Positions 5,123 to 56,795 of a stretch of 57,597 nucleotides of DNA are shown piece after piece. A program made the translations under genes and the position numbers. Numbering within the stretch: position 1 is the stretch's first letter; each line of letters starts with the position of its first letter. The DNA is from a virus, in IMG/VR virus record IMGVR_UViG_3300037119_000577, positions 1 to 57,597 of that record. One strand, written 5' to 3'. The notes below the pieces were generated by a model that was given only the letters and a program-made list of their open reading frames with translations, was not told the origin of the DNA and did not search any database.

Positions 5123-5159
5123 AAAATCCTCATATAAGGCGGACGGGGGGTGTAGCCTA

Positions 5160-6753: not shown

Positions 6754-6942
6754 CTACCACTGTTTATCGTCCGGAATGATCCAACCTTTAGGTTTCTTTT
6801 TCGGATTCAGTAACTGGGCGGTCTCGCAGCAAAATTGGGGATACATCGCCCACCGACTAGGGTTTAGCCAGATCACGCGGAGTTCTTCGGGTGTGACGTA
6901 TCGCCAAGGATTCAGGGTGTCGAATTGGTGAAGCCAGATCAT
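6754..6942 (-). CDS. CPT-core family micro-protein, 62 aa
   Basis: Begins MIWLHQFD and contains the family core as FCCETAQLLN near residue 38, followed by a Lys/Pro-rich tail. The ATG overlaps the stop of the polymerase C-terminal gene as ATGA. It is one of six family members on the minus strand; three others sit just upstream of the polymerase. Function unknown. Confidence 0.75.
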   Translation of the reverse strand: MIWLHQFDTLNPWRYVTPEELRVIWLNPSRWAMYPQFCCETAQLLNPKKKPKGWIIPDDKQW

Positions 6943-7802
6943 TTAGCGTCCATCCACGTAAATCCTGAAACGAACCCGACCCTAATCTTGACTGTCCATC
7001 CGAGATCGTCGTTTAAAGATTGGACGGCGGCTTCTTTAGCGGCACGGAATTCCTCGAGGCGGTCGGTAGGCACTTCTGCCAAAATTTCGTCATGAATTAC
7101 GGTCACGAACCGACTGTAAGGCGCTAGAGCGAAAAGTTTGGCCGTCAGTATATGGATTAATCCAGACACGGAACTCTGGATCAAATAATTAAACGCCTTG
7201 CGAGGTTCGGGGGTTAGCCTATACCCAAACTCGTTTATCAATGCCCCGTCTAACTTAATCTGCCGCTCGAGACTGTCGGCCAACTCGCGAACTTTCGCAA
7301 AAAGTGCCCAATACACATTATAGAATTCCTTAGCCTCCTTAAACGACAATATGAATCCGTTTTCGTACGCAGTATTTACTAATTTGCGAGGCTGCATAGA
7401 ATAACCGAGACCGAGGCAAAGGATTTTATGCAGTTGTCTCAGGGTCTTAAGGGATTTCTTAATAATATCGTCGTCGGCTACCCACTGGTCCGCGAACGAC
7501 CCCGCAGGCCACGTCGCGTTGAACGCGGCGCGCACTTCGTCCTTACCTATCGGCGACCGGCTGGCCACCATTAAATAAATATCAGAAATCATCAACGTGT
7601 GATTACTATCGTAGTACGGCCGCTCGCCAACGCCGTCCAACGTTGCGTACCGGTACATGCGATCGCCGGAATAGTGACTAGTAACCGCAGGCTCTCCTGA
7701 AGCCAGGTCCATTGACACGATTGTATAACCTGGATCAGTCTCGATACACCGCATTAGCTCGGGGCTTTTCCTGCTGAGCCCTTGAGGATTTAATCGGGCC
7801 AC
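6939..7802 (-). CDS. Family A DNA polymerase, C-terminal part (palm and fingers), 287 aa
   Basis: Carries motif A (VSMDLASGEPAV, catalytic Asp), a motif B region (HKILCLGLGYSM, a KxxxxGxxY pattern) and motif C (VIHDEILAE, catalytic Asp). It starts inside what should be one continuous motif: RLNPQGLSRK normally follows the Thr-x-x-Arg segment that ends the N-terminal part at 8371. The GTG at 7802 is preceded by GGAGG with five bases between, so this part appears to be translated on its own and would have to assemble with the N-terminal polypeptide. A spliced intron is the alternative, but the insert leaves little room for a ribozyme. Confidence 0.88.
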   Translation of the reverse strand: MARLNPQGLSRKSPELMRCIETDPGYTIVSMDLASGEPAVTSHYSGDRMYRYATLDGVGERPYYDSNHTLMISDIYLMVASRSPIGKDEVRAAFNATWPAGSFADQWVADDDIIKKSLKTLRQLHKILCLGLGYSMQPRKLVNTAYENGFILSFKEAKEFYNVYWALFAKVRELADSLERQIKLDGALINEFGYRLTPEPRKAFNYLIQSSVSGLIHILTAKLFALAPYSRFVTVIHDEILAEVPTDRLEEFRAAKEAAVQSLNDDLGWTVKIRVGFVSGFTWMDAK

Positions 7803-8374
7803 GAATGCCTCCGACTCATGCAACGGTCAAACCATAACTTAAATTCAGTTAATGTCAGGTCGTTTTTGGCCACATTGCATGTTCCGCAACATGCTCGTAA
7901 ATTGTTAACTAGGTATCCTGCAGTGTTATCTAATCTATCTACCCCATTAACGCGTACCGAATCCGCGACTCTACCGCCTCGATTATATGTCTTAATATTA
8001 CTACTTGCGGGTATACCGCATATATAACATGGCGACATTATCAGGTCTCGGAATTCGTCTAAGGTCACAGAAAATTCGTAATTCCGGCTCTTGGCGTTAA
8101 ATTTATAACTCCGAAAATGCTGGCGCGTGGCGGCCTCCCCATCGGGTAGCCGGCTCAGGTTCTTGCGCGGACGATTCGCCCACCGGTCTGCTTTACAGCC
8201 ACACGAGGGTAGAGGTCGATACCGAAGATACGGCCCTCTGAACACCCGCTCGGTTCCGCAATCGCATCTACCTAAGTAGTAGGGTACTTTATTTTTGGTG
8301 TGCGAAAAACTTAGTACGGTCACTAATCCGAATTTCGCGTTGATCATATCGATCCGATTGTGCGCAGCAGTCAA
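7790..8374 (-). CDS. HNH homing endonuclease splitting the DNA polymerase gene, 194 aa
   Basis: The N-terminal domain has the pattern common in phage HNH proteins (FGLVTVLSF, YYLGRCDCGTERVF, SCGCKADRW), with a putative zinc site. The C-terminal part has CYICGIP, a conserved GVDRLDN, LRACCGTCNVAKND and FKLWF, an HNH with CxxC zinc pairs. The TTG start at 8374 lies behind GGGAGG, which is part of the codons for the polymerase's Gly-Gly; the TGA of the upstream half overlaps it. The ORF fills the whole interval between the polymerase halves. HNH endonucleases such as I-HmuI of phage SPO1 are known from DNA polymerase genes. Confidence 0.88.
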   Translation of the reverse strand: MTAAHNRIDMINAKFGLVTVLSFSHTKNKVPYYLGRCDCGTERVFRGPYLRYRPLPSCGCKADRWANRPRKNLSRLPDGEAATRQHFRSYKFNAKSRNYEFSVTLDEFRDLIMSPCYICGIPASSNIKTYNRGGRVADSVRVNGVDRLDNTAGYLVNNLRACCGTCNVAKNDLTLTEFKLWFDRCMSRRHSWPD

Positions 8375-9585
8375 TGGCGACCTCCCGCCATACGGCTCGT
8401 GCTAGTCCCGGCAACTTTGATGTCGATATACCAACGATTACAGTGACTTGACGCCGCGTATAGAGCGTCAATCTGTTTCAGTACGATCATGCGCTTCTTC
8501 CGTTTCTGTAACATTAGTCCCGGCTCGCCCCACTGACCCAGTAAACTAGCCTTCGTAGACGGGGCTCCCTTCTTAGTAAAGAACTTGGGCACCATCCCCA
8601 TCTTAATCATAAATAGGTGCACCAGTTGCGCCCCCGATCCGGGATTGAATTTCACTTCCTTGAGTGCCTTCGGGTCCCCGGCGCGGTACTTACGAAGACG
8701 GCCCTCCCGACCCTTGTCGGTCTTAACCTTACTCAACCACTTCTGTAGGCGGTCCTCTTCGACTTCCGCGATCTGAGGGGCGTACGCCGTCAAAAAGCGC
8801 TGCTCAATCTCGGTAATCTCCTTGGCGACGATTTCCCGGTTCTTAAGAGCGAGGGGCCGGTTAATCGGAACGCCCCGGATCTTAGCGCCCACCACGAAAT
8901 CCGCGGTCGACTTGTACAGCTGGTGATCGAGGGACCAGTCGTACCCGATCGTCACGAAATAGTCCGTGATGAACTTATAGAGGCGGAGGGTAATCTCAGT
9001 GTCCGCGACGTTGTAAGTACGCAGAATGTCCGGGGGCAGCCGATCGAGGTACATACCCTCCTGGCCCTTCTTAACCCCGGGCACGTTCGCCTTGATCCAG
9101 TCGTGGGCCTCTTTTTTATGGGAGACGGTTTCACCGAGGATCCGGAGGGCGCACTTAACGAGACCGAGGCCCGCGGTTGGGATCTTTTTAACCTCAGGGG
9201 TCTCCCCGTACTCAATAACAACGGACTCGTCGACCACGACTTCAAACGCGCTCTTGTCGCCCCCGTTATCATACACTTGCGCGAGGCGCATCGTATCGAA
9301 GGCCAAGTCGGGCTGTAGGTGCGGGTATCGACACAGGAAAACGCCCTTCTCGAATTGGTAGTTATGGACTATAAATTGGTAGCTGTCGGCGACAAGCTCG
9401 GCGATACGTTGGCCGACTTCGACTTCACCTACCAAGTACTCTGACCGGATCTCGTCCCCGACGAACTCGGAAAAGGCACACGACATTACCCGGAACAGGG
9501 GCCTGTAGTATTCGGTCGAGGCTCGAAAGGACCCGTCGGGCTGGAGTTCGCCGGTCTCAAAGTCCAAGCATATTATCTTATACAT
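8371..9585 (-). CDS. Family A DNA polymerase, N-terminal part (3'-5' exonuclease and start of polymerase), 404 aa
   Basis: Exonuclease motifs are in order: CLDFETGE (residues 7-14, metal-binding Asp and Glu), IVHNYQFEKGVF, and YNVADTEITL. The polymerase domain starts in the second half and stops right after GTSTSRMAGG, the Thr-x-x-x-Arg motif, followed by two stray residues and a TGA. The ATG at 9585 (MYKIICLDFE) is preferred to the upstream in-frame ATG at 9651, because the upstream stretch is occupied in another frame by a CPT-core gene. Together with 6939-7802 it would make a T7/PolI-type replicative polymerase of about 690 residues. Confidence 0.88.
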   Translation of the reverse strand: MYKIICLDFETGELQPDGSFRASTEYYRPLFRVMSCAFSEFVGDEIRSEYLVGEVEVGQRIAELVADSYQFIVHNYQFEKGVFLCRYPHLQPDLAFDTMRLAQVYDNGGDKSAFEVVVDESVVIEYGETPEVKKIPTAGLGLVKCALRILGETVSHKKEAHDWIKANVPGVKKGQEGMYLDRLPPDILRTYNVADTEITLRLYKFITDYFVTIGYDWSLDHQLYKSTADFVVGAKIRGVPINRPLALKNREIVAKEITEIEQRFLTAYAPQIAEVEEDRLQKWLSKVKTDKGREGRLRKYRAGDPKALKEVKFNPGSGAQLVHLFMIKMGMVPKFFTKKGAPSTKASLLGQWGEPGLMLQKRKKRMIVLKQIDALYAASSHCNRWYIDIKVAGTSTSRMAGGRH

Positions 9586-9695
9586 AAGGTGAACATCTCC
9601 ACCGTGGGGCACATAGTCCGCATCGTAATCGTCGGGTATGTCCGCGACCATCTATAGTAACGGCCAAGTAAGAACGTATCTTCTACCCAATACAT
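9573..9695 (-). CDS. CPT-core family micro-protein, 40 aa
   Basis: Begins MYWVEDTFLL and ends with the core MCPTVEMF and six residues. It overlaps the start of the DNA polymerase gene by 13 bases in another frame, which is why the polymerase start is placed at 9585. One of three family members in tandem here. Confidence 0.75.
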   Translation of the reverse strand: MYWVEDTFLLGRYYRWSRTYPTITMRTMCPTVEMFTLCIR

Positions 9696-9700
9696 TCTTC

Positions 9701-9853
9701 TCACGGGCGCGCCTTAAATGGGTTACGGACGGATTGGGCGAACAACTTAATAGTCGGACAGCATACGTACTGCGCGGATATGCTCCACACCCTAAGCGTG
9801 GGTATGCGCATCCAGTGCGGCCCGTCCGGTACTCCGACGTCTCGCCAAAACAT
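9701..9853 (-). CDS. CPT-core family micro-protein, 50 aa
   Basis: Begins MFWRDVG and has the core VCCPTIKLFA at residues 30-39, followed by a basic tail (SVRNPFKARP). The start overlaps the previous stop by one base (TGATG), showing tight coupling to the gene at 9853. Confidence 0.75.
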   Translation of the reverse strand: MFWRDVGVPDGPHWMRIPTLRVWSISAQYVCCPTIKLFAQSVRNPFKARP

Positions 9854-9972
9854 CAGCGCCTCAACATATTAACGGTGGGGCACGCCGCCGGATAAATGCT
9901 ACCTACGGCAGGACCGAGCCAATATAGGACCCTACCCCCGAGCTTGCCGTATACCCAAATCGACGTTACCAT
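9853..9972 (-). CDS. CPT-core family micro-protein, 39 aa
   Basis: A very short member: aromatic N-terminal half (IWVYGKL, LYWLG) and the core ACPTVNML followed by Arg-Arg and stop. The ATG lies seven bases inside the end of the collagen-like lipoprotein gene. The core ends almost at the C-terminus, so the tail beyond it is dispensable in the family. Confidence 0.72.
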   Translation of the reverse strand: MVTSIWVYGKLGGRVLYWLGPAVGSIYPAACPTVNMLRR

Positions 9973-10679
9973 ACGACTTCACCTGCCGAAGTTACGGAAA
10001 AATAACAGAGGGTTCCGTCCGTTGAAACATAGTTACCGGGCACCAGTAGCGAAAATCGCGTGTTCTTGCCGTTCGCATTATCGGAGAACGAAGCCAAAAT
10101 TGATCCGTCGTTGAGCCTTAAGAGCACCTCGTCGAACCCGGGCCCATTTCCGCACGGATCAATCGCCGCCACGGGGGTAAATGGGGTCGGAGGGGCGTCC
10201 AAACCGTTTTCGCCGTCCTCCCCGTTACACACCGTCGCCGACTGTTGGCCCGTGTCGAAGGGGGACCAGAGGCCGTCACGATCCGAGTCGAGGGCCGCCA
10301 ACCAGGTCACTCCTCCCGCGGGGCATCCGATTGCGGGGCCGAATTCAAATACGACAGAATACCCAGCAGGCCCCGTTGGACCATAATCGCCAGTAGCGCC
10401 GTTAGCACCGTCAGTACCAGAAACGCCCGTACTCCCCACAGAGCCAGTAGGACCGGCGCTCCCAGTAGGGCCTTGAGTACCGTTCGCGCCGTTTTCACCG
10501 GGGAGCCCATTCGTGCCGTCCTTACCGTCTTTTGGTTGTTGACCGGATTGTACCGTAGGGGGAGGGGTTGGCGCAGGGTCCGGTTGGGCGCACCCTTCGG
10601 TCACGCATTCCGACTGATAATAGACGCGCCCGCAGCCTATGATTAACGCGGCCGTTGCAAGTATTTTGACCAGGTACAC
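9966..10679 (-). CDS. Collagen-like lipoprotein, 237 aa
   Basis: The GTG at 10679 is preceded by GGGAGG. A signal peptide with lipobox (ATAALIIGC, C16) is followed by a Cys/Pro-rich linker and about 16 Gly-x-y triplets (about residues 52-100; for example GTNGLPGENGANGTQGPTGS), then a C-terminal globular region with a DSDRDGLWSPFDTG calcium-loop-like segment and several Cys. Phage collagen-like repeats are usually found in fibres; here the lipobox suggests a membrane-anchored trimeric stalk made in the infected cell. It is coupled to the exported ClpP-like gene upstream. Surface shielding or adhesion is inferred. Confidence 0.75.
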   Translation of the reverse strand: MYLVKILATAALIIGCGRVYYQSECVTEGCAQPDPAPTPPPTVQSGQQPKDGKDGTNGLPGENGANGTQGPTGSAGPTGSVGSTGVSGTDGANGATGDYGPTGPAGYSVVFEFGPAIGCPAGGVTWLAALDSDRDGLWSPFDTGQQSATVCNGEDGENGLDAPPTPFTPVAAIDPCGNGPGFDEVLLRLNDGSILASFSDNANGKNTRFSLLVPGNYVSTDGTLCYFSVTSAGEVVW

Positions 10680-11365
10680 GAGATACCTCCCGAAAGATTG
10701 AGGAACATGCCCAAGGATTTTTGTAGACGCACCGACTTAAGAATACGGGGCACCAGCTGGGGGTAATTAGGGACGATCTTAAGAAAATGCGGATCGGCTT
10801 CATTAAGCTCGTATCCGGACCAGAGGGTTTCCCGATTAAAATGGTGAAGGATAACGTCCGCCTTCATCCGAAGCGCGCCGTACAGCTGATAAAGCATCAA
10901 CCGGTCGTCGTGCTGAAGAGACTCGGCCCAATTGGTAGCGGACTCCCGGGTGAGCACTCCCGACACACCAATCCGCGCCCCATGCCACAGTAGATAAGAG
11001 CCCGGCAAGGCCCACCGGTTCGTACACTGGGAGTATATGTAGAACGCCATGGACGCCGACATACTCAAGGTGTAACAATTGACAGTGCGCTTTTGGCCTT
11101 TGAGGAGGGCGATCAGGTTGATCAACTCCTGGCCCGCTGTAACCACGCCGCCCGGGGAGTCGATCAGGATGTCCACGGACTGCTTTGAGGGCACTAGGAG
11201 CCGCTGTTGGAGGGCGGCTTTGATAGGTGTGATCGACTCATCGGTAATCATGCCGTCGATAAAGATGAGGGGATCGGGTTCGGCGTCGGCGAACGTGGCC
11301 CACAGTAGGCAGCTAAGGACCGCCGCCAGAGTAACTAAAGACAGCCAATTAATAAACTTGCTCAT
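10643..11365 (-). CDS. Exported ClpP/SppA-like serine protease, 240 aa
   Basis: A hydrophobic N-terminus (LVTLAAVLSCLLWATFADA) looks like a signal peptide or anchor. The ClpP fold is indicated by DSPGGVVTAG (oxyanion loop), LSMSASMAFYIYSQC (nucleophile Ser in the position of the SMA motif) and LPGSYLLWHGARI (His). The C-terminal part beyond residue 200 is extra. It starts as ATGA with the Sak4-like gene. Targeted outside the cytoplasm, it may process envelope or phage-exported proteins such as the neighbouring collagen-like lipoprotein. A second, cytoplasmic ClpP-like gene lies at 54143. Confidence 0.78.
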   Translation of the reverse strand: MSKFINWLSLVTLAAVLSCLLWATFADAEPDPLIFIDGMITDESITPIKAALQQRLLVPSKQSVDILIDSPGGVVTAGQELINLIALLKGQKRTVNCYTLSMSASMAFYIYSQCTNRWALPGSYLLWHGARIGVSGVLTRESATNWAESLQHDDRLMLYQLYGALRMKADVILHHFNRETLWSGYELNEADPHFLKIVPNYPQLVPRILKSVRLQKSLGMFLNLSGGISCTWSKYLQRPR

Positions 11366-12210
11366 TTGCCCATCCTGTCCGCTTTAAGTTTCGCGAGTAA
11401 CGAAAGATCCGCAGGCATCGTAGGTTCTTGGATGTCCAGACCGGACAATCGCGGCGAAAAGTTCATTGCTTTCTTCTGGTTACCCGATTCGTCCTTCGAA
11501 ACCTTGGTGAGGTCGGTAAGAAACTGGAACTTGTACTTTGTTTCCCCGCCCCGCGTCATCTTACCGACGACCGCGATGTCCCCGAAATGCTGATTCAAGG
11601 ACTCCGCCAAACCGTAGCCGCCAAGCCGGGGGGCCGCCTCGTCGATAGCGCCAAACGCGTCCGTCGATTTGACATCCAGGACCCCCGTTACAACGATATG
11701 GGTACCGAGTTCCCGCTGGCATGCCTTGAGGAGGCCAATAACTTCGCCTAGGATTTCTTGGGTCGCTTCGGTCTCCTTGTACGTATTATGCTTACCCGCG
11801 GTAGTGCGGCACTTCTCCTTCCACTCCTGGGTACCTTTCACCATCGCTTCAAGGACCGCGAGACCGTCGACGGCAATCGCCTTGTACGCCTGGGACTTGA
11901 TGTACGCCTGGTCCATCAAGATCGCACGAAGGAACTCGAGGGACTCGTCGGAAGTAAAGGCGCGCTCGTCTTTCTCCCCGGGCCACACGCCATAGTCGAT
12001 GCACATTGGCTCGACATTAGCCTTACCTTGAACGGATGCGGTCTTCGGCCCGTGGGACTCTCGGAGCCCATACAGATAAAGCGTCTTAACGCCCAAGGTA
12101 CCGATACAATACGACTTTCCCGCGCCTTGACTTCCAAGCACAATAAGTTCAAGCAGTGGGTTCTTAAGAGCCTTAGCGGCGGACTTTTTCGCGGCGTCGA
12201 AGTTAAACAT
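11362..12210 (-). CDS. RecA/Sak4-like AAA ATPase, 282 aa
   Basis: A Walker A motif (LGSQGAGKS, about residues 26-34), a Walker B-like strand (YKAIAVDGLAVLEAM) and a later THIVVTGVLD strand fit the RecA-fold ATPases that phages use as Sak4-type single-strand annealing or recombination proteins. It lies among exonuclease, SSB and resolvase genes, which supports a role in recombination. P-loop NTPases of this type are hard to separate, so the exact class is less certain. Confidence 0.72.
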   Translation of the reverse strand: MFNFDAAKKSAAKALKNPLLELIVLGSQGAGKSYCIGTLGVKTLYLYGLRESHGPKTASVQGKANVEPMCIDYGVWPGEKDERAFTSDESLEFLRAILMDQAYIKSQAYKAIAVDGLAVLEAMVKGTQEWKEKCRTTAGKHNTYKETEATQEILGEVIGLLKACQRELGTHIVVTGVLDVKSTDAFGAIDEAAPRLGGYGLAESLNQHFGDIAVVGKMTRGGETKYKFQFLTDLTKVSKDESGNQKKAMNFSPRLSGLDIQEPTMPADLSLLAKLKADRMGK

Positions 12211-12452
12211 TACTTACGGTCTCCTTTGAGGTTCAAACGTTTAACCAGGTCCAAGTTAGCGGCCTTACGGTCCGCAGCTTCCCGGCGCTTAGCTTCCCAC
12301 TTCCGACGGGCCAGACGCTCGAGAGGGGTGCGACGACGGGACTGATCGTACGGGATCACTTGGGCCAAGCCAATGCTGCCCCCGAAGACCGAGACCCGGG
12401 CCGTTTGAAAGACCCGGTTAAGGACGGTATTAATATCTTTTTGATCACTCAT
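12210..12452 (-). CDS. Hypothetical basic protein, 80 aa
   Basis: ATG at 12452, with GGAGG upstream, overlapping the previous stop as ATGA. The C-terminal half is Arg/Lys/Ala-rich and helical (for example RLARRKWEAKRREAADRK). It may bind nucleic acid. It lies between recombination genes. No family is recognised. Confidence 0.65.
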   Translation of the reverse strand: MSDQKDINTVLNRVFQTARVSVFGGSIGLAQVIPYDQSRRRTPLERLARRKWEAKRREAADRKAANLDLVKRLNLKGDRK

Positions 12453-12586
12453 TGTTTGGTTCCTCCATTAAGCTTATCGTCGGTCCGTCTGGAAAACTTT
12501 AGCAGTTTCTCAGAACCGCAGCGAGGACAGCGGGTTACCTTGGTGCGCATTAATAGTCGGCAAGAGGCGCACTTGTATATAGTCAC
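12449..12586 (-). CDS. Small zinc-ribbon protein, 45 aa
   Basis: GTG start overlapping the exonuclease stop as GTGA, and an ATGA overlap at its end. Two CxxC pairs (YKCASCRLL and RCPRCGSEK) separated by about 11 residues form a typical zinc ribbon, followed by a basic tail. It may be an accessory to the exonuclease, which ends in a zinc ribbon of its own, or a small DNA-binding factor. Confidence 0.72.
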   Translation of the reverse strand: MTIYKCASCRLLMRTKVTRCPRCGSEKLLKFSRRTDDKLNGGTKQ

Positions 12587-13371
12587 CGGGACCCCGGCCG
12601 CAGAGACGCCTTCTTTTCCAGTGAAAGCAGATTGTTACGATCACGGGTCTCCGCGCCGCACTCGACGCATTTGTATCTTTGATACTTACCAACCGCGGTA
12701 AACTTGTAACCGTTCTTCTTAAACTCCGTGGATCCACAGTTACACTCAGTATCTAAGGATGCGGAATACATATTGAAATTGATCGAGTTATCCCACGGTT
12801 CGAGCTTCTTATAAAGTTCCTCGAGCGAGAGTACATCGTACTTATTATACCGCTCCATCTCTTTCCACGCCGCCAGATTGCCCGCGAGGCACTCCTTCCA
12901 CAATTCGAACCCGCCAAACTTCGCGTGCTTGATCTTCTTGTACTTAACGCACAGTTTGTCCGTCATGTACTCGAGCTTATTGGAAGTAAATTTGAAATGC
13001 TTGGACGCGATCTGTTTGGTATCAATATGCTTAAACGACGATGGGGGCTGAAATCCGTTGAGAATGAACCGCGCGTTCAATTTCTTCTGATCAAAGGACT
13101 TTCCATTTTGGGTGATTACGATATCGGCCTCGTTAAGGAGGTCCCAGATACCCTGGAGCAGCTTGCGGTCGTCTTGGATGTCCTTAACGCCCCGCTGATC
13201 CTTGTACATGATCTTGGTAGGCGGATCATGCAGCCACTTGGCGGACCACGAAAGTACGTGCCAGTCGGAATGGACCTGATTGAGGGCGACGTTGTTCTCC
13301 CAGAGACCCCACACATAGCCGAGCATGGGAGCCGTCTCTATATCAAAGATAAGGACCTTAGGCTTACTCAT
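12583..13371 (-). CDS. DEDDy 3'-5' exonuclease with C-terminal zinc ribbon, 262 aa
   Basis: RNase H-fold exonuclease motifs appear in order: LIFDIETAP (residues 7-15), VITQNGKSFDQKKLNARF, and YNKYDVLSLEELY (Y-x3-D form). This is the layout of exonucleases related to the family B polymerase proofreading domain. The C-terminus has CNCGS and YKCVECGAE, a zinc ribbon. It sits in the recombination/replication operon and probably trims DNA ends for recombination with the Sak4-like ATPase. Confidence 0.8.
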   Translation of the reverse strand: MSKPKVLIFDIETAPMLGYVWGLWENNVALNQVHSDWHVLSWSAKWLHDPPTKIMYKDQRGVKDIQDDRKLLQGIWDLLNEADIVITQNGKSFDQKKLNARFILNGFQPPSSFKHIDTKQIASKHFKFTSNKLEYMTDKLCVKYKKIKHAKFGGFELWKECLAGNLAAWKEMERYNKYDVLSLEELYKKLEPWDNSINFNMYSASLDTECNCGSTEFKKNGYKFTAVGKYQRYKCVECGAETRDRNNLLSLEKKASLRPGSR

Positions 13372-13502
13372 TGTGTTATCATCCTAGCGGCAATAGATAG
13401 TACGCAAGCGGTCCCTGCTCCGAATATAGTAACCGACATACAGTAGCATAGCATCCAACAAATATCGGCTACCCGATCTCGGTATTCACCTAAACTACTC
13501 AT
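13368..13502 (-). CDS. Micro membrane protein, 44 aa
   Basis: ATG at 13502 overlaps the upstream stop by eight bases and the TGA overlaps the next ATG as ATGA. After a charged N-terminus of about 12 residues, the rest is one hydrophobic stretch (ICWMLCYCMSVTIFGAGTAC onward). It is not far from the endolysin gene (13909), so a holin-like role is possible. Confidence 0.6.
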   Translation of the reverse strand: MSSLGEYRDRVADICWMLCYCMSVTIFGAGTACVLSIAARMITQ

Positions 13503-13776
13503 CGTCAGACCTCATCGGGATGTTAAACTTGAGACCACGAACTTTAGCGAATGCTCGAGCCGCTTTCAGCTTAGATGCGAACTTACGTTTATTGTCTAAA
13601 TACTTAGTATCGCGGTAGTCCTTAAGTTCCGCCGTCATCTTCTCGATCTGCTCGTCAGATTTCATAGCCTCGTCTAACCGCTTAATACCCTCGAACAGCG
13701 AGCCAACTAAGTCCACTAGCTCCTCGTCGGTCATGTTTACGAGCCGCGCCTCTTCTAGAATGAGCTTATTTGCCAT
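13495..13776 (-). CDS. Hypothetical helical protein, 93 aa
   Basis: The ATG at 13776 (MANKLILEEA) has GAGG upstream and is preferred to the in-frame ATG at 13818. The protein is strongly charged and predicted helical, possibly a coiled coil, with a basic C-terminal half. Function unknown. Confidence 0.65.
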   Translation of the reverse strand: MANKLILEEARLVNMTDEELVDLVGSLFEGIKRLDEAMKSDEQIEKMTAELKDYRDTKYLDNKRKFASKLKAARAFAKVRGLKFNIPMRSDDE

Positions 13777-13919
13777 GTATGCCTCGGCTTTAAAATGTTT
13801 ATCTCCATCGGGTGCCATGTATAGAAATCAGGCTCTTTAATCAAAAGGCACGTAGGGCAACTCCACCCCCGACTTGTAAAGAACGTCGTATACAGCGGCG
13901 TGGGTCCGCTATACGTCAA
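13755..13919 (-). CDS. CPT-core family micro-protein, 54 aa
   Basis: Starts at a TTG at 13919 inside the 3' end of the endolysin gene. The core is SCPTCLLI at about residue 20, and unusually it is followed by a long tail of about 27 residues. The start codon and its weak binding site make the 5' boundary uncertain. It connects the family to the lysis region. Confidence 0.55.
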   Translation of the reverse strand: MTYSGPTPLYTTFFTSRGWSCPTCLLIKEPDFYTWHPMEINILKPRHTWQISSF

Positions 13920-14331
13920 GATCCGCCCGCCATTTCCGGAGATCGTTTCGGAAGTCTTCGGGGTCAAAATTGGGGCAAGTCTTTCCGGCGTTGAATTCCC
14001 GATGCCCATAAACGTCCTTACTCTTAAGGCCGAATTCGTCCAAAAGGTCTGATACCAGTTCATACATTGACTCCCGTTGCACTTCAGTCATCCGGTCTCG
14101 CCCGATCCAACAAATACCGATAGACTCGGCGTTCTTCCCCTCGCAATGGGCTCCGCGTTGGTCAACCGGACGCCCATCTTCGATCGCGCCATTGCGACGG
14201 ATAACATAATGATATCCCACATCTTTCCAGCCGCGCCCTTTAACGTGCCATTCGCGGACCTCTCTTACGCCGACGTCTAGAGTATCGGGGCTGTCCGACG
14301 TATGCAGGATAATCATGGAAATTTTACGCAC
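13909..14331 (-). CDS. N-acetylmuramoyl-L-alanine amidase endolysin (T7 lysozyme type), 140 aa
   Basis: Matches the Amidase_2/PGRP fold: IILHTSDSP (His 10, zinc ligand), VGYHYVIRRNG, then VYGHREF (second zinc His) and KTCPNFD (zinc Cys), the same order as in T7 lysozyme. The length of about 140 fits that family. It cleaves the bond between muramic acid and L-Ala in peptidoglycan. The GTG at 14331 lies behind AAGGAG and overlaps the upstream gene. No signal peptide is seen, so a holin would be needed for release. T7 lysozyme also inhibits RNA polymerase, but no such phage polymerase is seen here. Confidence 0.9.
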   Translation of the reverse strand: MRKISMIILHTSDSPDTLDVGVREVREWHVKGRGWKDVGYHYVIRRNGAIEDGRPVDQRGAHCEGKNAESIGICWIGRDRMTEVQRESMYELVSDLLDEFGLKSKDVYGHREFNAGKTCPNFDPEDFRNDLRKWRADLDV

Positions 14332-14758
14332 GCCAAATCTCCTTGATAGCGTAGCCCTGCGGGGTTACGTATAGCCCGAAGCGTTTTGCTACCAGCAGCT
14401 CGTAAGGGTCTGTACACTCGATCCATATAAGCGGGTCCGCGCAAAGCCTGTCTAAATTTTCAGCAAACCTTATACGCGCGACCTCTATACGCTCTTGGTG
14501 ACTATTGTCGTACAACTTTGCCAAATGCCGCATCGCCCGGCTGCGGTACCTGCTACTAGTCCACATACCCTTAGGCGTTCGTAGCAGGTCATAGTCCGTA
14601 CCGGGTCTAGAGTTAAATAGCTCGATTACGCGGGTCTTTAGCCCTGCATATGATAATAGGGCAGGCACGGTTAGATCGCCGAGATAGACTACTTCCCCGG
14701 AACTACGTACACCGTACTCCATTACAACTTTTGGCTTGAATAGGTCTCTAATCTTCAT
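14324..14758 (-). CDS. Hypothetical protein, 144 aa
   Basis: A good GGAGGG site precedes the ATG at 14758, and a promoter-like sequence lies 30 bases further up. It is a basic, helical-looking protein without recognised motifs. As first gene of a transcript it leads into the endolysin gene, with which it overlaps by eight bases. Confidence 0.65.
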   Translation of the reverse strand: MKIRDLFKPKVVMEYGVRSSGEVVYLGDLTVPALLSYAGLKTRVIELFNSRPGTDYDLLRTPKGMWTSSRYRSRAMRHLAKLYDNSHQERIEVARIRFAENLDRLCADPLIWIECTDPYELLVAKRFGLYVTPQGYAIKEIWRA

Positions 14759-14786
14759 TTAACAACCCTCCTCGCGACTCGAAAAT

Positions 14787-14815
14787 AACTTATCAACTAT
14801 TAATATCAACGTCAA
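14787..14815 (-). promoter_or_regulatory. Possible sigma70-like promoter
   Basis: TTGACG (14810-14815) and TAAGTT (14787-14792) on the minus strand with a 17-base spacer in AT-rich DNA, just downstream of the helicase gene and upstream of 14324-14758. The -10 is weak. Confidence 0.4.
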
Positions 14816-14832
14816 CATATTAATGTTTGCGC

Positions 14833-16293
14833 TTATGATTCTGCCCAAACTATAGACTCGACGAAGGACTTAGGCAACTTGTCCTTATACTGGCGAATGA
14901 GTCGGCTAAAGTTGCCGTCCAGAATGTAGGTCTTCGAAAAATCATCAGGATCCCGGGTGGACCGCCCGCACGCCTGGATCACCACTTTAAGCGTCTCGAG
15001 CGCGTACCAATCGTCCCCATCCTGGAGGGCCTTCCTCTTCGCAACAATCGGATCTTTGAGGTCGGGGAACGGGAGCTTAGGTATAATATTCAGGCGGCAC
15101 AGATCGCCCTTCAAGTCGATCCCCTCGGCGCACCCCGACGCCAGAAACACGCCCCCGTGCTGCTTAAAGAAGTCTAGCTTTTCAATCTTGTTCGTGGAGT
15201 CATTCACGATCACGGGCCCCGAAAAGTGGGGAGCCAGCTTCTTGGACATCGAGTACGTCGTATGGACCAAAGTATTAAGGCCCAGATTCGCCGCCAAGAT
15301 CTTCTCGATTTCGCCCACGATCTTCCGGGGGTCCGCCTCCCAATTCATCCGGAACGGGGCGGGCTTGAAGTACACGGGCCGATTCTCTTTGGGGATCGGG
15401 GAGGGCGCGTCTAGGAATTTAACGTGCCGATCGCCCACCAGATCGAGAATGTCGGACTGCATCAAGGTTCCCGACATTAAGATCAACTTCTTGGCTCTTA
15501 ATAGTTTATCAACGACGAACCGCGGAGGCCGGATGGGCTTAATATTAAGATACCGATCGGGCCTACCCCGGTACTTACCCGAATCGATCCACACCGCGTA
15601 ATTCTCGGGGGCCTCCTCCAGGCCGCGGAGGGTCATCCGGATTTGCTCGAGTTCGCGGGTTATTTCGGCGAACCGTGTGGGTTGGGCCTTATAGTAAATC
15701 GCGAGCGCGGACAGCTTTTTGATCTGATCCTGGAGCCACCGACCGAGGAATACGGTATTCGTGACGGTCTCGGGGAACTTGAACATCGAATACCGGAGCC
15801 GAGATCCGCACAACAAGAGGAGCATCGACGGAAGGGTGTGAGCCTCGTCGACTATCAGGACGTTCGGGTCCTCCCACCCCTCTGCCTGCGTAAGATAATA
15901 AAGCGACATAGGGTTAAAGAACGTCGGTTGCGTAAGGGCCCGCTGCTTACAAACGGTATAGGGGCAGTCCTGACACGCTTTTTGCTCAAGGGTGTTAGTC
16001 CAATCGTGGCACGAATAACCCGACGAGCAGTTATAATGGGTCTTCCCCTTCAAGAAATTCTTCTTTGGGTATGAAGCGGCGTACTGGTCGATCAGAAGGT
16101 TCGACGGCGTTATAACGTGGGCCCCGGTCACCAGGGAGATTGCCTGCGCTAAGGCGGACTTCCCGAGAGCGACGGGGAAATTGCCCGCGAGGATCGGGTG
16201 CTTCCAGTTTTCGGCGAACCACTCAAGAACGTCCTTCTGAACAGGTCGAGGAACGCGCGAGGTGCCATCGAAGTATTTAAGGAAGTCTACCAT
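14833..16293 (-). CDS. XPD/DinG-like superfamily 2 helicase, 486 aa
   Basis: A Walker A-like segment (FPVALGKSALAQA), DEAH box (LIVDEAHTLPS), a motif III-like LILMSGTL and motif VI (QACGRSTRDPDD) fit the Rad3/XPD/DinG group. Four cysteines between motifs I and II (NCSSGYSC and CQDCPYTVC) match the position of the iron-sulfur domain of that group. These enzymes unwind DNA 5' to 3'. The ATG at 16293 follows GAGG and lies four bases from the stop of a CPT-core gene. It is the likely replicative or recombination helicase, as no DnaB-type helicase is seen. Confidence 0.85.
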   Translation of the reverse strand: MVDFLKYFDGTSRVPRPVQKDVLEWFAENWKHPILAGNFPVALGKSALAQAISLVTGAHVITPSNLLIDQYAASYPKKNFLKGKTHYNCSSGYSCHDWTNTLEQKACQDCPYTVCKQRALTQPTFFNPMSLYYLTQAEGWEDPNVLIVDEAHTLPSMLLLLCGSRLRYSMFKFPETVTNTVFLGRWLQDQIKKLSALAIYYKAQPTRFAEITRELEQIRMTLRGLEEAPENYAVWIDSGKYRGRPDRYLNIKPIRPPRFVVDKLLRAKKLILMSGTLMQSDILDLVGDRHVKFLDAPSPIPKENRPVYFKPAPFRMNWEADPRKIVGEIEKILAANLGLNTLVHTTYSMSKKLAPHFSGPVIVNDSTNKIEKLDFFKQHGGVFLASGCAEGIDLKGDLCRLNIIPKLPFPDLKDPIVAKRKALQDGDDWYALETLKVVIQACGRSTRDPDDFSKTYILDGNFSRLIRQYKDKLPKSFVESIVWAES

Positions 16294-16463
16294 ACGTTCC
16301 TCTTTCCTAGCTGAATGAACATATCTATCGTGGGGCACGCGGGAATAATTTTAATAGAGGCGGGCTGCCTAAGCCTGGCTAATTGCGCGCGGTCACGCTT
16401 ATAATTACATCTAATCCATATACCTTGGTACGCCGTCAACCACCCATCTTGTGGGTCGATCAT
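16287..16463 (-). CDS. CPT-core family micro-protein, 58 aa
   Basis: Begins MIDPQDGWLT and carries the core PACPTIDMFI at residues 41-50, followed by QLGKRNVW. Its ATG overlaps the RuvC-like gene stop (ATGA), and its own end carries the helicase ribosome binding site. So it is translated between the resolvase and helicase genes. Confidence 0.75.
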   Translation of the reverse strand: MIDPQDGWLTAYQGIWIRCNYKRDRAQLARLRQPASIKIIPACPTIDMFIQLGKRNVW

Positions 16464-18282: not shown

Positions 18283-18295
18283 GTCCAGCCATTCT

Positions 18296-49538: not shown

Positions 49539-49703
49539 ATGATTTTATGGGTGCAGTTTAGAACGCCGAATACTCCCGATAGACTCGAGGGCCGGCACGG
49601 TCGGTGGGGGTTCGACACGGCCGGGGCCCTTTATCCGGCCCGGGGCTGGGTTAACGCGAGATACGTACCCTACTGCCCCACCGTCGGCATATTTTGGGCA
49701 TAA
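49539..49703 (+). CDS. CPT-core family micro-protein, 54 aa
   Basis: First gene of the plus-strand array. GGAGG precedes the ATG. It begins MILWVQF and ends PYCPTVGIFWA, so the core is almost at the C-terminus. The middle (residues 10-40) is Gly/Arg-rich. Confidence 0.75.
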   Translation: MILWVQFRTPNTPDRLEGRHGRWGFDTAGALYPARGWVNARYVPYCPTVGIFWA

Positions 49704-49718
49704 TTAAGGAGTCCGTGT

Positions 49719-49895
49719 ATGTGGGTTCATAGTGGCGGCCCCGATTCGCCGGTTAAGTTGCTCAGGTCGGGAGATATGGCGGGCCTACAAAATCCGATGT
49801 ACGAACCTTTCTCGGCCTGGCTTGCGCGCACTTGTTCATGGGACTTCTGCTGCCCCACCGCGCAGCTTTTCAATCGGGGAGGGTCGAACCTGTGA
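49719..49895 (+). CDS. CPT-core family micro-protein, 58 aa
   Basis: Behind TAAGGAG with eight bases to the ATG. Begins MWVHSGG; core FCCPTAQLFN at residues 43-52, tail RGGSNL. Its TGA overlaps the GTG of the next gene. Confidence 0.76.
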   Translation: MWVHSGGPDSPVKLLRSGDMAGLQNPMYEPFSAWLARTCSWDFCCPTAQLFNRGGSNL

Positions 49896-50128
49896 AAATC
49901 GTGCGGCCGATTCGTATGATGCGGGTAACGGCGGACGTAGGGCCAAAATACTGGTTGGTTAAGGTCGCGCCGCCCGGGCGTACGAACTGGATGCACGGAC
50001 TCTATTACTTTATTATGCGCGATGGGGGTAGTAAGCTTGATACGATTAGCGAACGCGCTCTAATTGAGTTCGGCTATCGGCCCGTTTGCGAACTCCAGGC
50101 CCTTTTCGCTATTGAGGAGACCCCGTGA
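49892..50128 (+). CDS. CPT-core family protein, longer variant, 78 aa
   Basis: GTG start overlapping the previous stop (GTGA), with GGGAGG upstream; the frame is open further 5' but the start decides. Core variant VCELQALFAIEETP at the C-terminus, with Glu-Leu in place of Pro-Thr. N-terminal half is basic and beta-like. Confidence 0.72.
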   Translation: MKIVRPIRMMRVTADVGPKYWLVKVAPPGRTNWMHGLYYFIMRDGGSKLDTISERALIEFGYRPVCELQALFAIEETP

Positions 50129-50373
50129 AATTCTTCCCCACGCAAGTCGACGACATAATTATGAATTTAGGCGGTAAGTACTTCTTGGTCGGAGAGCGTA
50201 TGTATAAGGAGAAATACTCCTTAGGGGCGCCGTGGGACCTCGTATCGCCGTCTGGGAGTTCGCCGTTCGGCCCTACAGAGTGGGACCGGTGGCGGAAGAG
50301 TTACGATCATCGTCTGATACGGTGTGATACGGTAAAGCTATTTTGCGGAGGGACCGATGTACGTAATCCATAA
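50125..50373 (+). CDS. CPT-core family protein, longer variant, 82 aa
   Basis: GTG start overlapping the previous stop, GAGGAG upstream. Core IRCDTVKLFCGG near residue 66. An N-terminal VDDIIMNLGGKYFLVGE segment suggests two beta strands ahead of the core. Confidence 0.74.
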   Translation: MKFFPTQVDDIIMNLGGKYFLVGERMYKEKYSLGAPWDLVSPSGSSPFGPTEWDRWRKSYDHRLIRCDTVKLFCGGTDVRNP

Positions 50374-50536
50374 ATCAGATGGGCGCGTGGAAAGGTTGTA
50401 CCGGGGAGACTACGGACAATTTTGGCGTGCCGGAGTGGGTCCGCATCATGTACGTCCGCTAAAATTGTGGACGTTCTATTGGTACGTTCACATTTGTCCC
50501 ACGGTGGAGATGATCATATCTAAGGAGAATTTCTAA
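50357..50536 (+). CDS. CPT-core family micro-protein, 59 aa
   Basis: GGAGGGACCG precedes the ATG at 50357, inside the previous gene. Core HICPTVEMII, with Ile in the last aromatic position, followed by SKENF. Ends in a TAATG overlap. Confidence 0.75.
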   Translation: MYVIHKSDGRVERLYRGDYGQFWRAGVGPHHVRPLKLWTFYWYVHICPTVEMIISKENF

Positions 50537-50739
50537 TGCGGATCGGTGATCTTCAAGTGGGCGATATTATTTGGGAAACCGAGTCCGGACTACTTAAAGG
50601 GGGCCTAGTTCTGAATTCTCGTCATTATATTTGTGAGACGAATCGTTTGGACCTACCCGCTCACGACCTAGATATTTCCTATCTGCGTGTAGTGCGGTGC
50701 CCGCTCTTGACGAAACTTTTCCCGGGGAGTCCGCTTTAA
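50536..50739 (+). CDS. CPT-core-like protein, divergent, 67 aa
   Basis: Starts by TAATG overlap. Core is a variant, RCPLLTKLFPGSPL, with an extra residue. The N-terminal DLQVGDIIWETESG is similar in style to the gene at 50125. Last member before the MoxR gene. Confidence 0.65.
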   Translation: MRIGDLQVGDIIWETESGLLKGGLVLNSRHYICETNRLDLPAHDLDISYLRVVRCPLLTKLFPGSPL

Positions 50740-50830
50740 AATTATGTTCTAAAGTTTTTCCGCGCGGGGTCGATAAGAAGTAAGTGAGTTGCGAAAGTCC
50801 ACTATTAATATCTTTACCGGAGTAACGTCG
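50740..50830 (+). other. Leader before the MoxR gene
   Basis: A 91-base gap in an otherwise overlapping array. It contains a T-rich stretch (AAAGTTTTTCC), a TATTAATATC word and GGAG ahead of the ATG at 50831. An internal promoter is possible but no clear -35/-10 pair was found. Confidence 0.35.
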
Positions 50831-52069
50831 ATGAATCTTAAAGAGTACCGCGAGGCGCTGCCCCTACTGTTCCAGGCACGCGTAACGTCACTTTGCTGGT
50901 CATTTCACGGAGTTGGAAAGAGTTCCGTTCCGCAACAATTTGCGGACGAGGGGGGCCATAAGCTAGTCAATTACCGTCTCGGCAATGTGGAGGCCGGGGA
51001 ACTTCTAGGTATCCCGACCGAGGTTATTGACCAGTACAATTCGGCCAATAAAGTCGCCACTCGCAACCTAATGCCCGAGTGGCTTAAAGATATGATCGCC
51101 TTTTGTGTAGCTAATCCGGATAAATATGGCATTCTACACTTGGACGAGATCAACCACTGCAGAAAAGACATGCAGTCATTCGTTTTCCAAATGTCCCTGG
51201 ATCACCGCCTGCACGAAACGGACTTCCCACCGAACCTTCATGTGATTTGTTCAGCAAACCCCCCTACGGACGACTACGCGGGCGTGTTCGACTTTTCCAA
51301 CAAGGCGCTCTTAAGCCGCTTCTGTCATATTAAGCTTCAGCCCACCTCCTCGGAATGGCTCGAGTATGCGCGCTTCAAAGAGTTCGACGCCGACGTGGTC
51401 GACTATATTGCTCTTAATCCGGAGCAGCTCGACCCGGTCCTTCAGCCGTTCTCCGTGGACGAATACGCGAACCGGAACCGCCGAAGTTTCGAGTTCTTCT
51501 CGAGGCTCCGGAAGCTGGGCGCCTCGAATGAGCTTCTGATGGGTATCATCGGTTCGGCGAACGTACTCGCTTTTAATAAGTGGCTCGACGAAGCCCGGGA
51601 AAAGTCCATTGTGGGTGCGGACATTCTCGACGGCTATTCGAAGGTCCAAGATCGGGTGCGCGAACTTGTGAAGGCGGGTAAAATCGCCTCCCTGACCACG
51701 ATAACCGCGTCCCTGGTGTCCGCAATCGAGCCGATCCCCGAGGCGGCCTTCGTCGACCAAGTGGACCGTGTGCGCAATGTGGCGGCCTTTATTTGCGACT
51801 TGCCCCCGGACATCGGTTGGGCCGCTGCGAGTCAGATCGTATTCCTTCCCGCCGCCCACTACGGTCCCGACAAGCCCACCGGCAAGGAGCCCACCCAAAC
51901 GCCCGGATCGATGTGGGGCCCCCACACGTGTCCGGAGCTTTACGAAACCGTAAAAGCGTGGAAGGAAGCGGGCATCGACAAGAAGCACCAGGCCGCGGAA
52001 GAGACGAAAGCCAGAGAGGCCGAAGTTGCCGCAGAAGCCCCAGTCGCCAAAAAGAAAAAGAAGGCTTAA
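50831..52069 (+). CDS. MoxR-type AAA+ ATPase, 412 aa
   Basis: Walker A is FHGVGKSSVPQQ, Walker B ILHLDEINHC, sensor 1 VICSANPPTDD, and an arginine-finger-like LLSRFCHIKL follows. Together these are typical of the MoxR subgroup. The C-terminus ends in a Lys/Ala-rich tail (AEAPVAKKKKKA). The ATG at 50831 is preferred to the in-frame TTG at 50789. MoxR ATPases act with VWA proteins; one lies 370 bases downstream. The pair may remodel or disassemble protein complexes in the infected cell. Confidence 0.85.
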   Translation: MNLKEYREALPLLFQARVTSLCWSFHGVGKSSVPQQFADEGGHKLVNYRLGNVEAGELLGIPTEVIDQYNSANKVATRNLMPEWLKDMIAFCVANPDKYGILHLDEINHCRKDMQSFVFQMSLDHRLHETDFPPNLHVICSANPPTDDYAGVFDFSNKALLSRFCHIKLQPTSSEWLEYARFKEFDADVVDYIALNPEQLDPVLQPFSVDEYANRNRRSFEFFSRLRKLGASNELLMGIIGSANVLAFNKWLDEAREKSIVGADILDGYSKVQDRVRELVKAGKIASLTTITASLVSAIEPIPEAAFVDQVDRVRNVAAFICDLPPDIGWAAASQIVFLPAAHYGPDKPTGKEPTQTPGSMWGPHTCPELYETVKAWKEAGIDKKHQAAEETKAREAEVAAEAPVAKKKKKA

Positions 52070-52086
52070 TCCTTTTAGGAGATCTC

Positions 52087-52299
52087 ATGTATATTATGTT
52101 GTATGTTATTGTACCTATCGGCTACAACGATAAGACAGACTGGGTCGATTTTATGGACGTTCAGTGCGCGGGCCCCTTTGATACTGAGGAGGCGATGCAC
52201 GAATTCGATATACCGCTATTAAGTGGTACCTGCGCCCCGCTTAAATTTTTCCGCCTAGATCCTGCGACGGGCCTATACGCGCCGTATCTTCCAGAATGA
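52087..52299 (+). CDS. Divergent CPT-core-like protein, 70 aa
   Basis: AGGAG precedes the ATG. It contains GTCAPLKFFRLDP near residue 48, which keeps the Cys and the Leu-x-Phe-Phe spacing but lacks Thr. The N-terminus (MYIMLYVIVPIGYND) is hydrophobic. It is coupled to the clear family member at 52296. Membership is tentative. Confidence 0.55.
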   Translation: MYIMLYVIVPIGYNDKTDWVDFMDVQCAGPFDTEEAMHEFDIPLLSGTCAPLKFFRLDPATGLYAPYLPE

Positions 52300-52439
52300 G
52301 AGTCTACTGGTCTCGCATCCGCGGCGACTACGGCCGCAACGTTGAGAATCCGGGTATGCGGGAGCTTTTCTGGGAGCATATCCCCTTAGAAGAAATCGCG
52401 TGCCCCACGGTTGGCCTATTTTTAAGGGAGTACTCTTAA
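52296..52439 (+). CDS. CPT-core family micro-protein, 47 aa
   Basis: ATGA overlap at its start and TAATG overlap with the VWA protein gene at its end. Begins MRVYWSRI, core IACPTVGLFLREYS. Being sandwiched between the two ATPase-system genes ties the family to that system. Confidence 0.77.
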   Translation: MRVYWSRIRGDYGRNVENPGMRELFWEHIPLEEIACPTVGLFLREYS

Positions 52440-53593
52440 TGGATATTAATCCCCTCGAGCGCGCGATCATGCACTTGATTCGCGAGGAGCGCTGGTACGC
52501 CGAAGTGATCATGCAACTGGACCGTAAGGAGGACCCCAAAATCCCGGGAGGCACCGCCGCGGTGGGTATTCGCCCCCGGCCCACCCTCTACTATCATCCG
52601 GATCTATTTGCGAATAACGACTTACAGACGAACGTCCAACTCCTTAAACACGAAGTGGTCCATCTTCTTAATCAGCACTTAACGCGCACGGGCGGAACGA
52701 TGAACCGCCTCCAGAACGCGGCTGCGGACCTCGCCGTTAATTCCTTTATCGACGGCTTTCAGGGCCTTAAGACGAAGGACCCCGACGGCCAGTGGACCTT
52801 CAAGAAGGGGTGCACGGTCGAGAATATGAAGGACCAGTTTCCGTCATTGATCAAGGGGCAGACTATGGAGTGGTACATTGCCGCTCTCAAGCAGGACGGC
52901 GCAACCGAGGGGGGTGCTCCCGACACGTCCGACGATCACTCGAAGTGGTCCGAGGGCGACTCGTCCGGGTCCGAACTCGAGGAGTACGCCGTCAAAGGGA
53001 TCATGCAAACCGCGGTCGAGCGCACCCAGCGCGCCGGGGGGCAGGTTCCCGACGGTCTTCGGGACCTCCTTAAGAGCTTGCTATCAAGTAAGAGCCAGTG
53101 GCAGCGGGAGCTTCAACGGTTCCCCCAAGATGCTGAAATCGTGGGCACTGAAGATACGTGGCGCCGCAGGAATCGGAGGTTGGGATCTATAGTTCCCGGG
53201 TCCAAGAAGGTCCGCAAAGTCAAGGTGTGCGTGGGTATTGATGTATCCGGATCGGTGGACGGGCCTCTGTTGCAGCTTTTTTACGCGGAAATCGACAAAA
53301 TCGCCCAACATGCCGAAGTGGTAGCGAGTTTCTTTGACCATTGCGTGCAAAAAACGCTCCCGTGGTCTGAAGTGCGCAAACTTTCCAAAATTCCGGGCGG
53401 GGGCGGTACCTGTTTTCAGCCGATGCTCGACGAGGCCACAAAGATTAAAGCTGATGGGCTAATCATGTTAACTGACGGCATGAACGGGGACACGATCACC
53501 CGGCCGAAGTACCCGGTAATCTGGGCCGTCCCGGAACAGTACAACTACGTGCCCCAATTCGGAAAGTTGGTCAATATTGCGGATCCGAAATGA
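52439..53593 (+). CDS. VWA domain protein with metallopeptidase-like N-terminus, 384 aa
   Basis: The N-terminal half has HEVVHLLNQH (an HExxH zinc motif plus third His) as in the DUF2201-type metallopeptidase domain. The C-terminal half is a VWA domain: VGIDVSGSVDG (MIDAS D-x-S-x-S), GGGGTCFQPM (Thr) and MLTDGMNGD (Asp). The middle is acidic and Ser/Gly-rich. This family is the usual partner of MoxR AAA+ ATPases. The start is the ATG at 52439 (MDINPLERAI), coupled to the preceding micro-protein gene. Confidence 0.84.
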   Translation: MDINPLERAIMHLIREERWYAEVIMQLDRKEDPKIPGGTAAVGIRPRPTLYYHPDLFANNDLQTNVQLLKHEVVHLLNQHLTRTGGTMNRLQNAAADLAVNSFIDGFQGLKTKDPDGQWTFKKGCTVENMKDQFPSLIKGQTMEWYIAALKQDGATEGGAPDTSDDHSKWSEGDSSGSELEEYAVKGIMQTAVERTQRAGGQVPDGLRDLLKSLLSSKSQWQRELQRFPQDAEIVGTEDTWRRRNRRLGSIVPGSKKVRKVKVCVGIDVSGSVDGPLLQLFYAEIDKIAQHAEVVASFFDHCVQKTLPWSEVRKLSKIPGGGGTCFQPMLDEATKIKADGLIMLTDGMNGDTITRPKYPVIWAVPEQYNYVPQFGKLVNIADPK

Positions 53594-53727
53594 AAATATG
53601 GGGATGGGACGCTACGTATAATTCGTGGGTGTTAATCGGACGTAACGCGTGTCGCGCCTGGCCCATTTGGAGTGGGCACTTTATAGCATGCCCTACTGTA
53701 GCTCTACTAATACAGGATCCGAAATGA
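53590..53727 (+). CDS. CPT-core family micro-protein, 45 aa
   Basis: ATGA overlap with the VWA gene. Begins MKIWGWDAT, core IACPTVALLIQDPK. The last codons and following start (GGATCCGAAATGAAAA) duplicate those at the VWA gene end, suggesting the gene arose or moved by recombination there. Confidence 0.76.
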   Translation: MKIWGWDATYNSWVLIGRNACRAWPIWSGHFIACPTVALLIQDPK

Positions 53728-53864
53728 AAAACGGAATTCAGGGTGTCGTCTGGTGGCGCGAGTTCGGTGATTATCCGAACCCATGGCGGTCCAGGTTTAT
53801 GGTGGACTCCGGAATTGCTGAACGGCTCTGGTGTGAAACGTGCAAACTGATGGGGACTAAATGA
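53724..53864 (+). CDS. CPT-core family micro-protein, CxxC form, 46 aa
   Basis: ATGA overlap. N-terminus MKNGIQGVVWWREF; core LWCETCKLMGTK, with a second Cys giving CxxC. Coupled at both ends. Confidence 0.76.
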   Translation: MKNGIQGVVWWREFGDYPNPWRSRFMVDSGIAERLWCETCKLMGTK

Positions 53865-55339: not shown

Positions 55340-55342
55340 CCG

Positions 55343-55959: not shown

Positions 55960-55962
55960 CTA

Positions 55963-56769: not shown

Positions 56770-56795
56770 TATCATTAACTATTTAACATTAATAC

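What the first reader, a model, noticed from the sequence alone, without database searches (positions are those of the whole stretch)
6754..16463. Six CPT-core copies are dispersed next to replication and lysis genes on the other strand
Copies at 6754, 9573, 9701, 9853, 13755 and 16287 lie against the polymerase halves, helicase, resolvase and endolysin, partly overlapping them. So the family is not confined to one array or one strand; copies seem to move individually and to be kept where they are co-translated with core genes.
Basis: partly seen in the sequence, partly recalled or inferred. Interest (0 to 1): 0.75.

Follow-up and report, generated by a model that had tools for sequence, protein, structure and literature searches.

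The report
Phage small-protein family, anchored ends, variable middles
A 57-kb phage genome carries at least 27 tiny related genes whose proteins keep the same start and end but differ almost completely in between; five of the six strays reported outside the main cluster are real members, and what the family does is unknown.

Summary
The motif is real. A strict form, C[PE]T[VCAI]x[LMI][FLMI], occurs 19 times in six frames against 0.06 expected. All 19 lie in the plus-strand array or at the six reported minus-strand sites. A profile trained only on 22 array members ranks five of the six dispersed copies first to fifth of all non-array ORFs. The sixth (13755) scores E=1.0, which is noise. The five also share the second family mark, an early Trp (24 of 27 members, 7 of 62 other genes). 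Synonymous codons in the core follow genome usage, so protein is conserved, not a DNA element. The middles are hypervariable and rich in Trp and Tyr, only in the coding frame. Copies sit at gene junctions with touching stop and start codons on both strands. Three of the five form one tandem block, so 'moving individually' is not shown. The tree is unresolved. I found no relative in phage, IMG/VR or genome collections. Best reading: a lineage-specific, translationally coupled family of small accessory proteins on one fold, diversified for different partners, probably host takeover or counter-defence. The family is well supported; the function is inferred.

The parts
6754..6942 (-). dispersed copy 1, 62 aa, ATG overlaps the stop of the polymerase C-terminal half
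   Evidence: core CETAQLL; array-trained profile E=0.013; Trp at residue 3; next gene ATG 13 nt after its stop
9573..9695 (-). dispersed copy 2, 40 aa from ATG 9695; its stop lies inside the start of the polymerase N-terminal half (ATG 9585)
   Evidence: core CPTVEMF; profile E=0.003; Trp at residue 3
9701..9853 (-). dispersed copy 3, 50 aa, middle of a three-copy tandem block
   Evidence: core CPTIKLF; profile E=0.0009; Trp at residue 3
9853..9972 (-). dispersed copy 4, 39 aa, first of the tandem block; TGATG overlap with copy 3
   Evidence: core CPTVNML; profile E=0.0098; Trp at residue 6
13755..14063 (-). claimed sixth copy, 102 aa ORF overlapping the endolysin by about 155 nt; not confirmed
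   Evidence: strict core CPTCLLI but profile E=1.0, 28-residue tail, start uncertain
16287..16463 (-). dispersed copy 5, 58 aa; ATGA overlap with the resolvase-like gene's stop; its stop overlaps the helicase start ATG 16293
   Evidence: core CPTIDMF; profile E=0.0012
49539..57428 (+). array: 22 copies used here, interleaved with MoxR ATPase, VWA/DUF2201, ClpP-like protease and a 113-aa gene
   Evidence: divergent members at 54958 (FCPLVRLM) and 56957 (ACDLCYLF) included
55489..55644 (+). broken array copy: in-frame TAG at codon 3, core CPTVRLF intact
50831..52069 (+). MoxR-type ATPase within the array (ORF 50789-52069)
   Evidence: phrog_1297 E=3.8e-41; tblastn to phages
52436..53593 (+). VWA-like/DUF2201 protein within the array, start overlapping a copy's stop
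   Evidence: Pfam PF09967, PF13203
54143..54679 (+). ClpP-like protease within the array, start inside a copy's last codons
   Evidence: phrog_94 E=9e-24

Best explanation
This is a lineage-specific family of small phage proteins (about 39 to 93 aa, at least 27 intact genes plus one broken copy) that grew by duplication and then diverged very fast except at its two ends. The early Trp and the C-terminal Cys-(Pro/Glu/Asp)-Thr-x-x-(Leu/Met)-(Phe/Leu) segment probably form a common scaffold: a beta hairpin followed by a helix whose first turn is capped by the Cys. The hypervariable, Trp/Tyr-rich middle would carry the partner-specific surface. Copies are made in series by translational coupling, as their starts and stops touch those of neighbouring genes in both operons. 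The five dispersed copies are ordinary members in the replication operon, not a separate class. The likeliest role is a set of accessory binders for host takeover or counter-defence. Shown: family membership of five copies, protein-level constraint, junction placement, interruption of one copy by a nonsense codon. Inferred: scaffold, coupling in the cell, binding role.
For: Motif excess 19 vs 0.06. Array-trained profile finds five dispersed copies on top. Early Trp in 24 of 27 members vs 7 of 62 other genes, p=1.7e-12. Core codons: 509 of 1,249 same-residue pairs share the codon, 482 expected from genome usage, 71 of 400 simulations as high, hence no DNA-level constraint detected. Interior Trp 5.4% and Tyr 7.0% in frame, 0.5-1.4% and 1.9-3.6% in the other two frames; whole-protein Trp 5.3% vs 1.6% in 27 other small genes, p=8e-8. 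Touching or overlapping stops and starts. Both AlphaFold runs give a hairpin and then a helix starting right after the Cys. One copy is interrupted by TAG while its core persists.
Against: The structure models are poor (mean pLDDT 59 and 57, pTM 0.21 and 0.30). There is no partner, host or expression evidence. No relatives were found, so selection cannot be measured. Arg is not enriched against other small genes of this phage. Placement next to replication genes could mean a replication role rather than takeover. Three of 27 members have no Trp in the first 10 residues.
Confidence: 0.5

Rival explanations
1. Subunits or regulators of the phage replication machinery: each dispersed copy is co-translated with polymerase, resolvase or helicase and binds its neighbour.
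For: Copies touch the starts or stops of the two polymerase halves, the resolvase and the helicase.
Against: Most members (22 of 27) lie in the other operon beside each other and beside MoxR, VWA and ClpP-like genes. The dispersed copies do not cluster in the tree, which is unresolved.
Confidence: 0.15
2. Thiol-redox or metal-binding miniproteins: the conserved Cys, with a second Cys directly before it or three residues after it, is a reactive or metal-binding site.
For: In the 27 aligned cores 6 have Cys at -1, 6 have Cys at +3 and none has both (counted from the sequences listed); interior Cys is only 1.6%. The Cys sits at the predicted helix start. phrog_33053 matches the CETC segment of one copy near its own C-terminus, E=0.011.
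Against: 15 of 27 have no second Cys at those two places, and some have no other Cys at all, so there is no shared metal site. The phrog_33053 match is one of 27 members scanned and weak.
Confidence: 0.15
3. Regulatory leader peptides: the coding sequence matters less than ribosome passage, which sets expression of the next gene.
For: Tight stop-start junctions and short tails carrying purine-rich stretches before the next start.
Against: The Trp-to-Cys distance varies from 24 to 79 residues, unlike recalled arrest peptides with fixed spacing; codons are free; the composition of the middle is frame-specific.
Confidence: 0.08
4. Small mobile cassettes that hop individually into gene junctions.
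For: Present on both strands; junction placement.
Against: No flanking repeats or mobility genes attached to copies were seen; three of five strays are a tandem block; no empty site known; ordinary duplication and drift suffices.
Confidence: 0.1

Closest known systems
Host-takeover gene clusters of small early proteins, such as the SPO1 module (search listing and abstract starts only: PMC6873191, PMC8208478, PMC10531801)
   Same: Many small phage genes packed together with diverse targets
   Different: As far as I recall, SPO1 genes are not one paralogous family with shared ends; here at least 27 genes share two anchors and lie in two operons
phrog_33053 (43 aa, function unknown)
   Same: One copy (53724) matches its C-terminal positions 30-40 of 43, the CETC segment, in the same place in the protein
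   Different: E=0.011 for one of 27 members scanned; no other copy matches; members of the PHROG could not be identified
phrog_34438 (47 aa); Arthrobacter phage Tank gp30 may belong to it (my inference)
   Same: First 26 residues of the 57282 copy match at E=0.0023
   Different: Tank gp30 has no C-terminal core, so probably a chance N-terminal likeness

Membership tests
CPT-core family of this genome | C-terminal core C-x-T-x-x-[LM]-[FLM] | tested here: met
   Five of six dispersed copies by array-trained profile; the sixth (13755) not
CPT-core family of this genome | Trp within the first 10 residues | tested here: met
   24 of 27 members, including all five confirmed dispersed copies
CPT-core family of this genome | start and stop close to or touching neighbouring genes | tested here: met
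   All five dispersed copies within 15 nt at both sides
Any Pfam, NCBIfam, PADLOC or solved-structure family | profile or sequence match above chance | tested here: not met
   24 members against Pfam, NCBIfam and PADLOC, best E 0.036, 0.099 and 0.018, each in a single member; profile against PDB, no match to E=10
PHROGs | a PHROG matched by several members | tested here: not met
   27 members scanned; six PHROGs each matched by one member, best E 0.0023
SPO1-type host-takeover genes | experimental effect on host processes | not testable with these tools
   no expression or binding data
mobile cassettes | presence/absence variation between related genomes | not testable with these tools
   no close relative found

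The most novel reading that the evidence does not exclude
A phage-borne repertoire: one small scaffold with fixed ends and a hypervariable, Trp/Tyr-rich middle, duplicated about 28 times across both operons, giving each infection a ready-made panel of binders against varied host defences or targets, refreshed by rapid duplication, divergence and decay of copies.
Probability: 0.2. Interest if true: 0.8.

Novelty: new variant of a known kind. Interest (0 to 1): 0.5.

Why it matters
Phage genomes are full of tiny genes of unknown role, usually unrelated to each other. Here a large set in one genome is a single family with two fixed anchors and free middles, so a structure of one member and a binding screen of several would say what the fixed part does and whether the variable part sets the target. 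That would make the role of a whole class of 'orphan' small genes testable at once.

Tried and rejected
DNA-element reading of the core: rejected, because codon choice follows genome usage (one search had one polymerase start off by one base, corrected in 82). One clade of dispersed copies versus array: tested, undecided. Finding relatives: megablast of window 1-25000, single-protein scans with polymerase, gp48090, terminase and major capsid, two- and three-core motif patterns in viral contigs and three-core in genome contigs. All matched stretches were chance or unrelated repeats. The pattern was too strict: by my own reading of the spacings (no call tested it) the window would not match it either. 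The polymerase-based set (80 loci, 966,382 bases) gave two isolated strict hits. The VWA-based set (80 loci) and the 35 genome stretches, 1,581,552 bases together, gave hits in 32 loci under a looser motif, none an array of similar short genes. The IMG/VR loci share only polymerase, MoxR or VWA with the window, at about 21-30% identity, so their lack of the family says little. Tank gp30, 4MG (wrong strand) and Daredevil were taken as chance; Daredevil was scanned for the motif only. Rfam: nothing. Structure library searches were not run because both models were too poor. Literature: five searches listed no description of such a family in titles or abstract starts, and one more was for the SPO1 comparison; no paper was opened, and this is a search result, not proof of absence.

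Full report
The window is a virus record of 57,597 bases. Nearly all its long genes run on the minus strand (terminase, portal, major capsid, tail, polymerase, helicase), and a plus-strand stretch from about 49.5 to 57.4 kb holds many small genes.

Observation. A strict motif C[PE]T[VCAI]x[LMI][FLMI] occurs 19 times in six frames; 200 Markov shuffles give 0.06 on average, at most 2. A broader form occurs 27 times against 0.58. Six strict hits are on the minus strand, exactly the six sites of the finding; the other thirteen are in the plus-strand array. To avoid circularity I trained a 14-column profile on the 22 array copies alone and searched 1,109 ORFs of the window. Five of the six reported copies are ranks one to five among non-array ORFs (E 0.0009 to 0.013). 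The copy at 13755 has E=1.0, among noise. In 30 shuffles the best single scores were 13.7 and 12.4 bits, so the two weakest of the five (12.0 and 12.4 bits) rest also on the early Trp and their position. An earlier model trained on both groups gave the same picture for 13755 (E=1.2).

Anatomy. For later tests I used 27 intact genes: 5 dispersed and 22 in the array; I left out 13755, the broken copy at 55489, and two possible divergent members (50536 with CPLLTKLF, and an ORF ending at 50128 with CELQALF). Trp lies within the first 10 residues in 24 of 27, and in 7 of 62 other genes of the window (one of those 62, the polymerase N-half, was misframed in that run), p=1.7e-12. Between the ends there is little alignable similarity: mean column identity is 13-15%. 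The middles hold 5.4% Trp and 7.0% Tyr in the coding frame but 0.5-1.4% and 1.9-3.6% in the other two frames. Against 27 other small genes of the phage, Trp is raised (5.3% vs 1.6%, p=8e-8) and Arg is not. In the core, codons for the same residue agree in 509 of 1,249 pairs; 482 are expected from the codon usage of 24 large genes and 71 of 400 simulations reach 509 (this test used the 27 core sites's broad list, with 13859 and 55591 included). Selection therefore acts on the protein. Twelve of 27 cores have a second Cys, six at -1 and six at +3, none at both (counted from the alignment).

Position. With the likely starts, copies begin and end at gene boundaries. The 6942 ATG overlaps the polymerase stop. 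9972, 9853 and 9695 follow each other and run into the polymerase start at 9585. The 16463 ATG overlaps the resolvase stop, and its stop overlaps the helicase start at 16293. Array copies are placed the same way, mostly against each other, with many TAATG, TGATG and ATGA junctions. Three of the five strays form one tandem block, so the confirmed strays occupy three places.

Decay. A copy at 55489 reads Met-Phe-TAG-Trp and then continues in frame to an intact core. It looks like a recently broken copy, consistent with birth and death of members; readthrough is not excluded.

History. A maximum-likelihood tree of 27 proteins on 46 columns has no well-supported branch; the dispersed label changes 4 times against 4.7 in shuffles (144 of 500 as low), and one clade is not rejected (AU p 0.33). 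Two of the four pairs drawn as resolved join a dispersed and an array copy (9573 with 50357; 9853 with 53590), which hints at mixing but is not proof.

Relatives. None was found. The phage collection gave no megablast match for the first 25 kb and no tblastn match at 1e-5 for the polymerase N-half or the capsid; the polymerase C-half, MoxR, VWA and gp48090 proteins have only distant matches. IMG/VR scans with four proteins found no relative. Motif-array patterns found only chance or repeats. No PHROG, Pfam, NCBIfam or PADLOC family was matched by more than one member, and no PDB chain matched.

Structure. Two AlphaFold runs on window-only alignments gave a beta hairpin and a helix starting after the Cys, at low confidence (pLDDT 59 and 57). 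I treat the fold as a guess.

Interpretation. Repeated duplication with fixed ends and free, aromatic middles fits a common scaffold with varied partner surfaces. Placement among non-structural genes and the touching stops and starts fit co-translated accessory proteins. A role in host takeover or counter-defence is a common fate of such small phage genes (recalled), but no experiment or homologue supports it here.

Noticed in passing
6939-9585, strand -: Family A polymerase is split in two ORFs with an ORF that reads like an HNH endonuclease (7790-8374) between them; no Rfam intron matched. Further HNH-like ORFs at 3868-4581 and 17806-18309. The HNH labels are my reading of the translations, not tested by a profile.
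   Followed up: partly
17-39, 114-136, 14796-14815, 46202-46224, 50800-50823, 57508-57530: Repeated TATTAATA-containing sites, possibly a phage promoter.
   Followed up: no
5156-5360: About 200 bases of CGACCx hexamer repeats.
   Followed up: no
10643-11365 strand - and 54143-54679 strand +: Two ClpP-like proteases in one phage, one with a signal-like N-terminus close to the dispersed tandem block, one inside the array.
   Followed up: no
9966-10679, strand -: Collagen-like repeat protein with a lipoprotein-like N-terminus just before the tandem block.
   Followed up: no
48090-49439, strand -: Protein of unknown function (phrog_4756, E=1.3e-54) with two or three places in some Vibrio phages.
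   Followed up: no
49905-50128 and 50536-50739, strand +: Two further small ORFs with degenerate cores (CELQALF, CPLLTKLF), possibly diverged members.
   Followed up: partly
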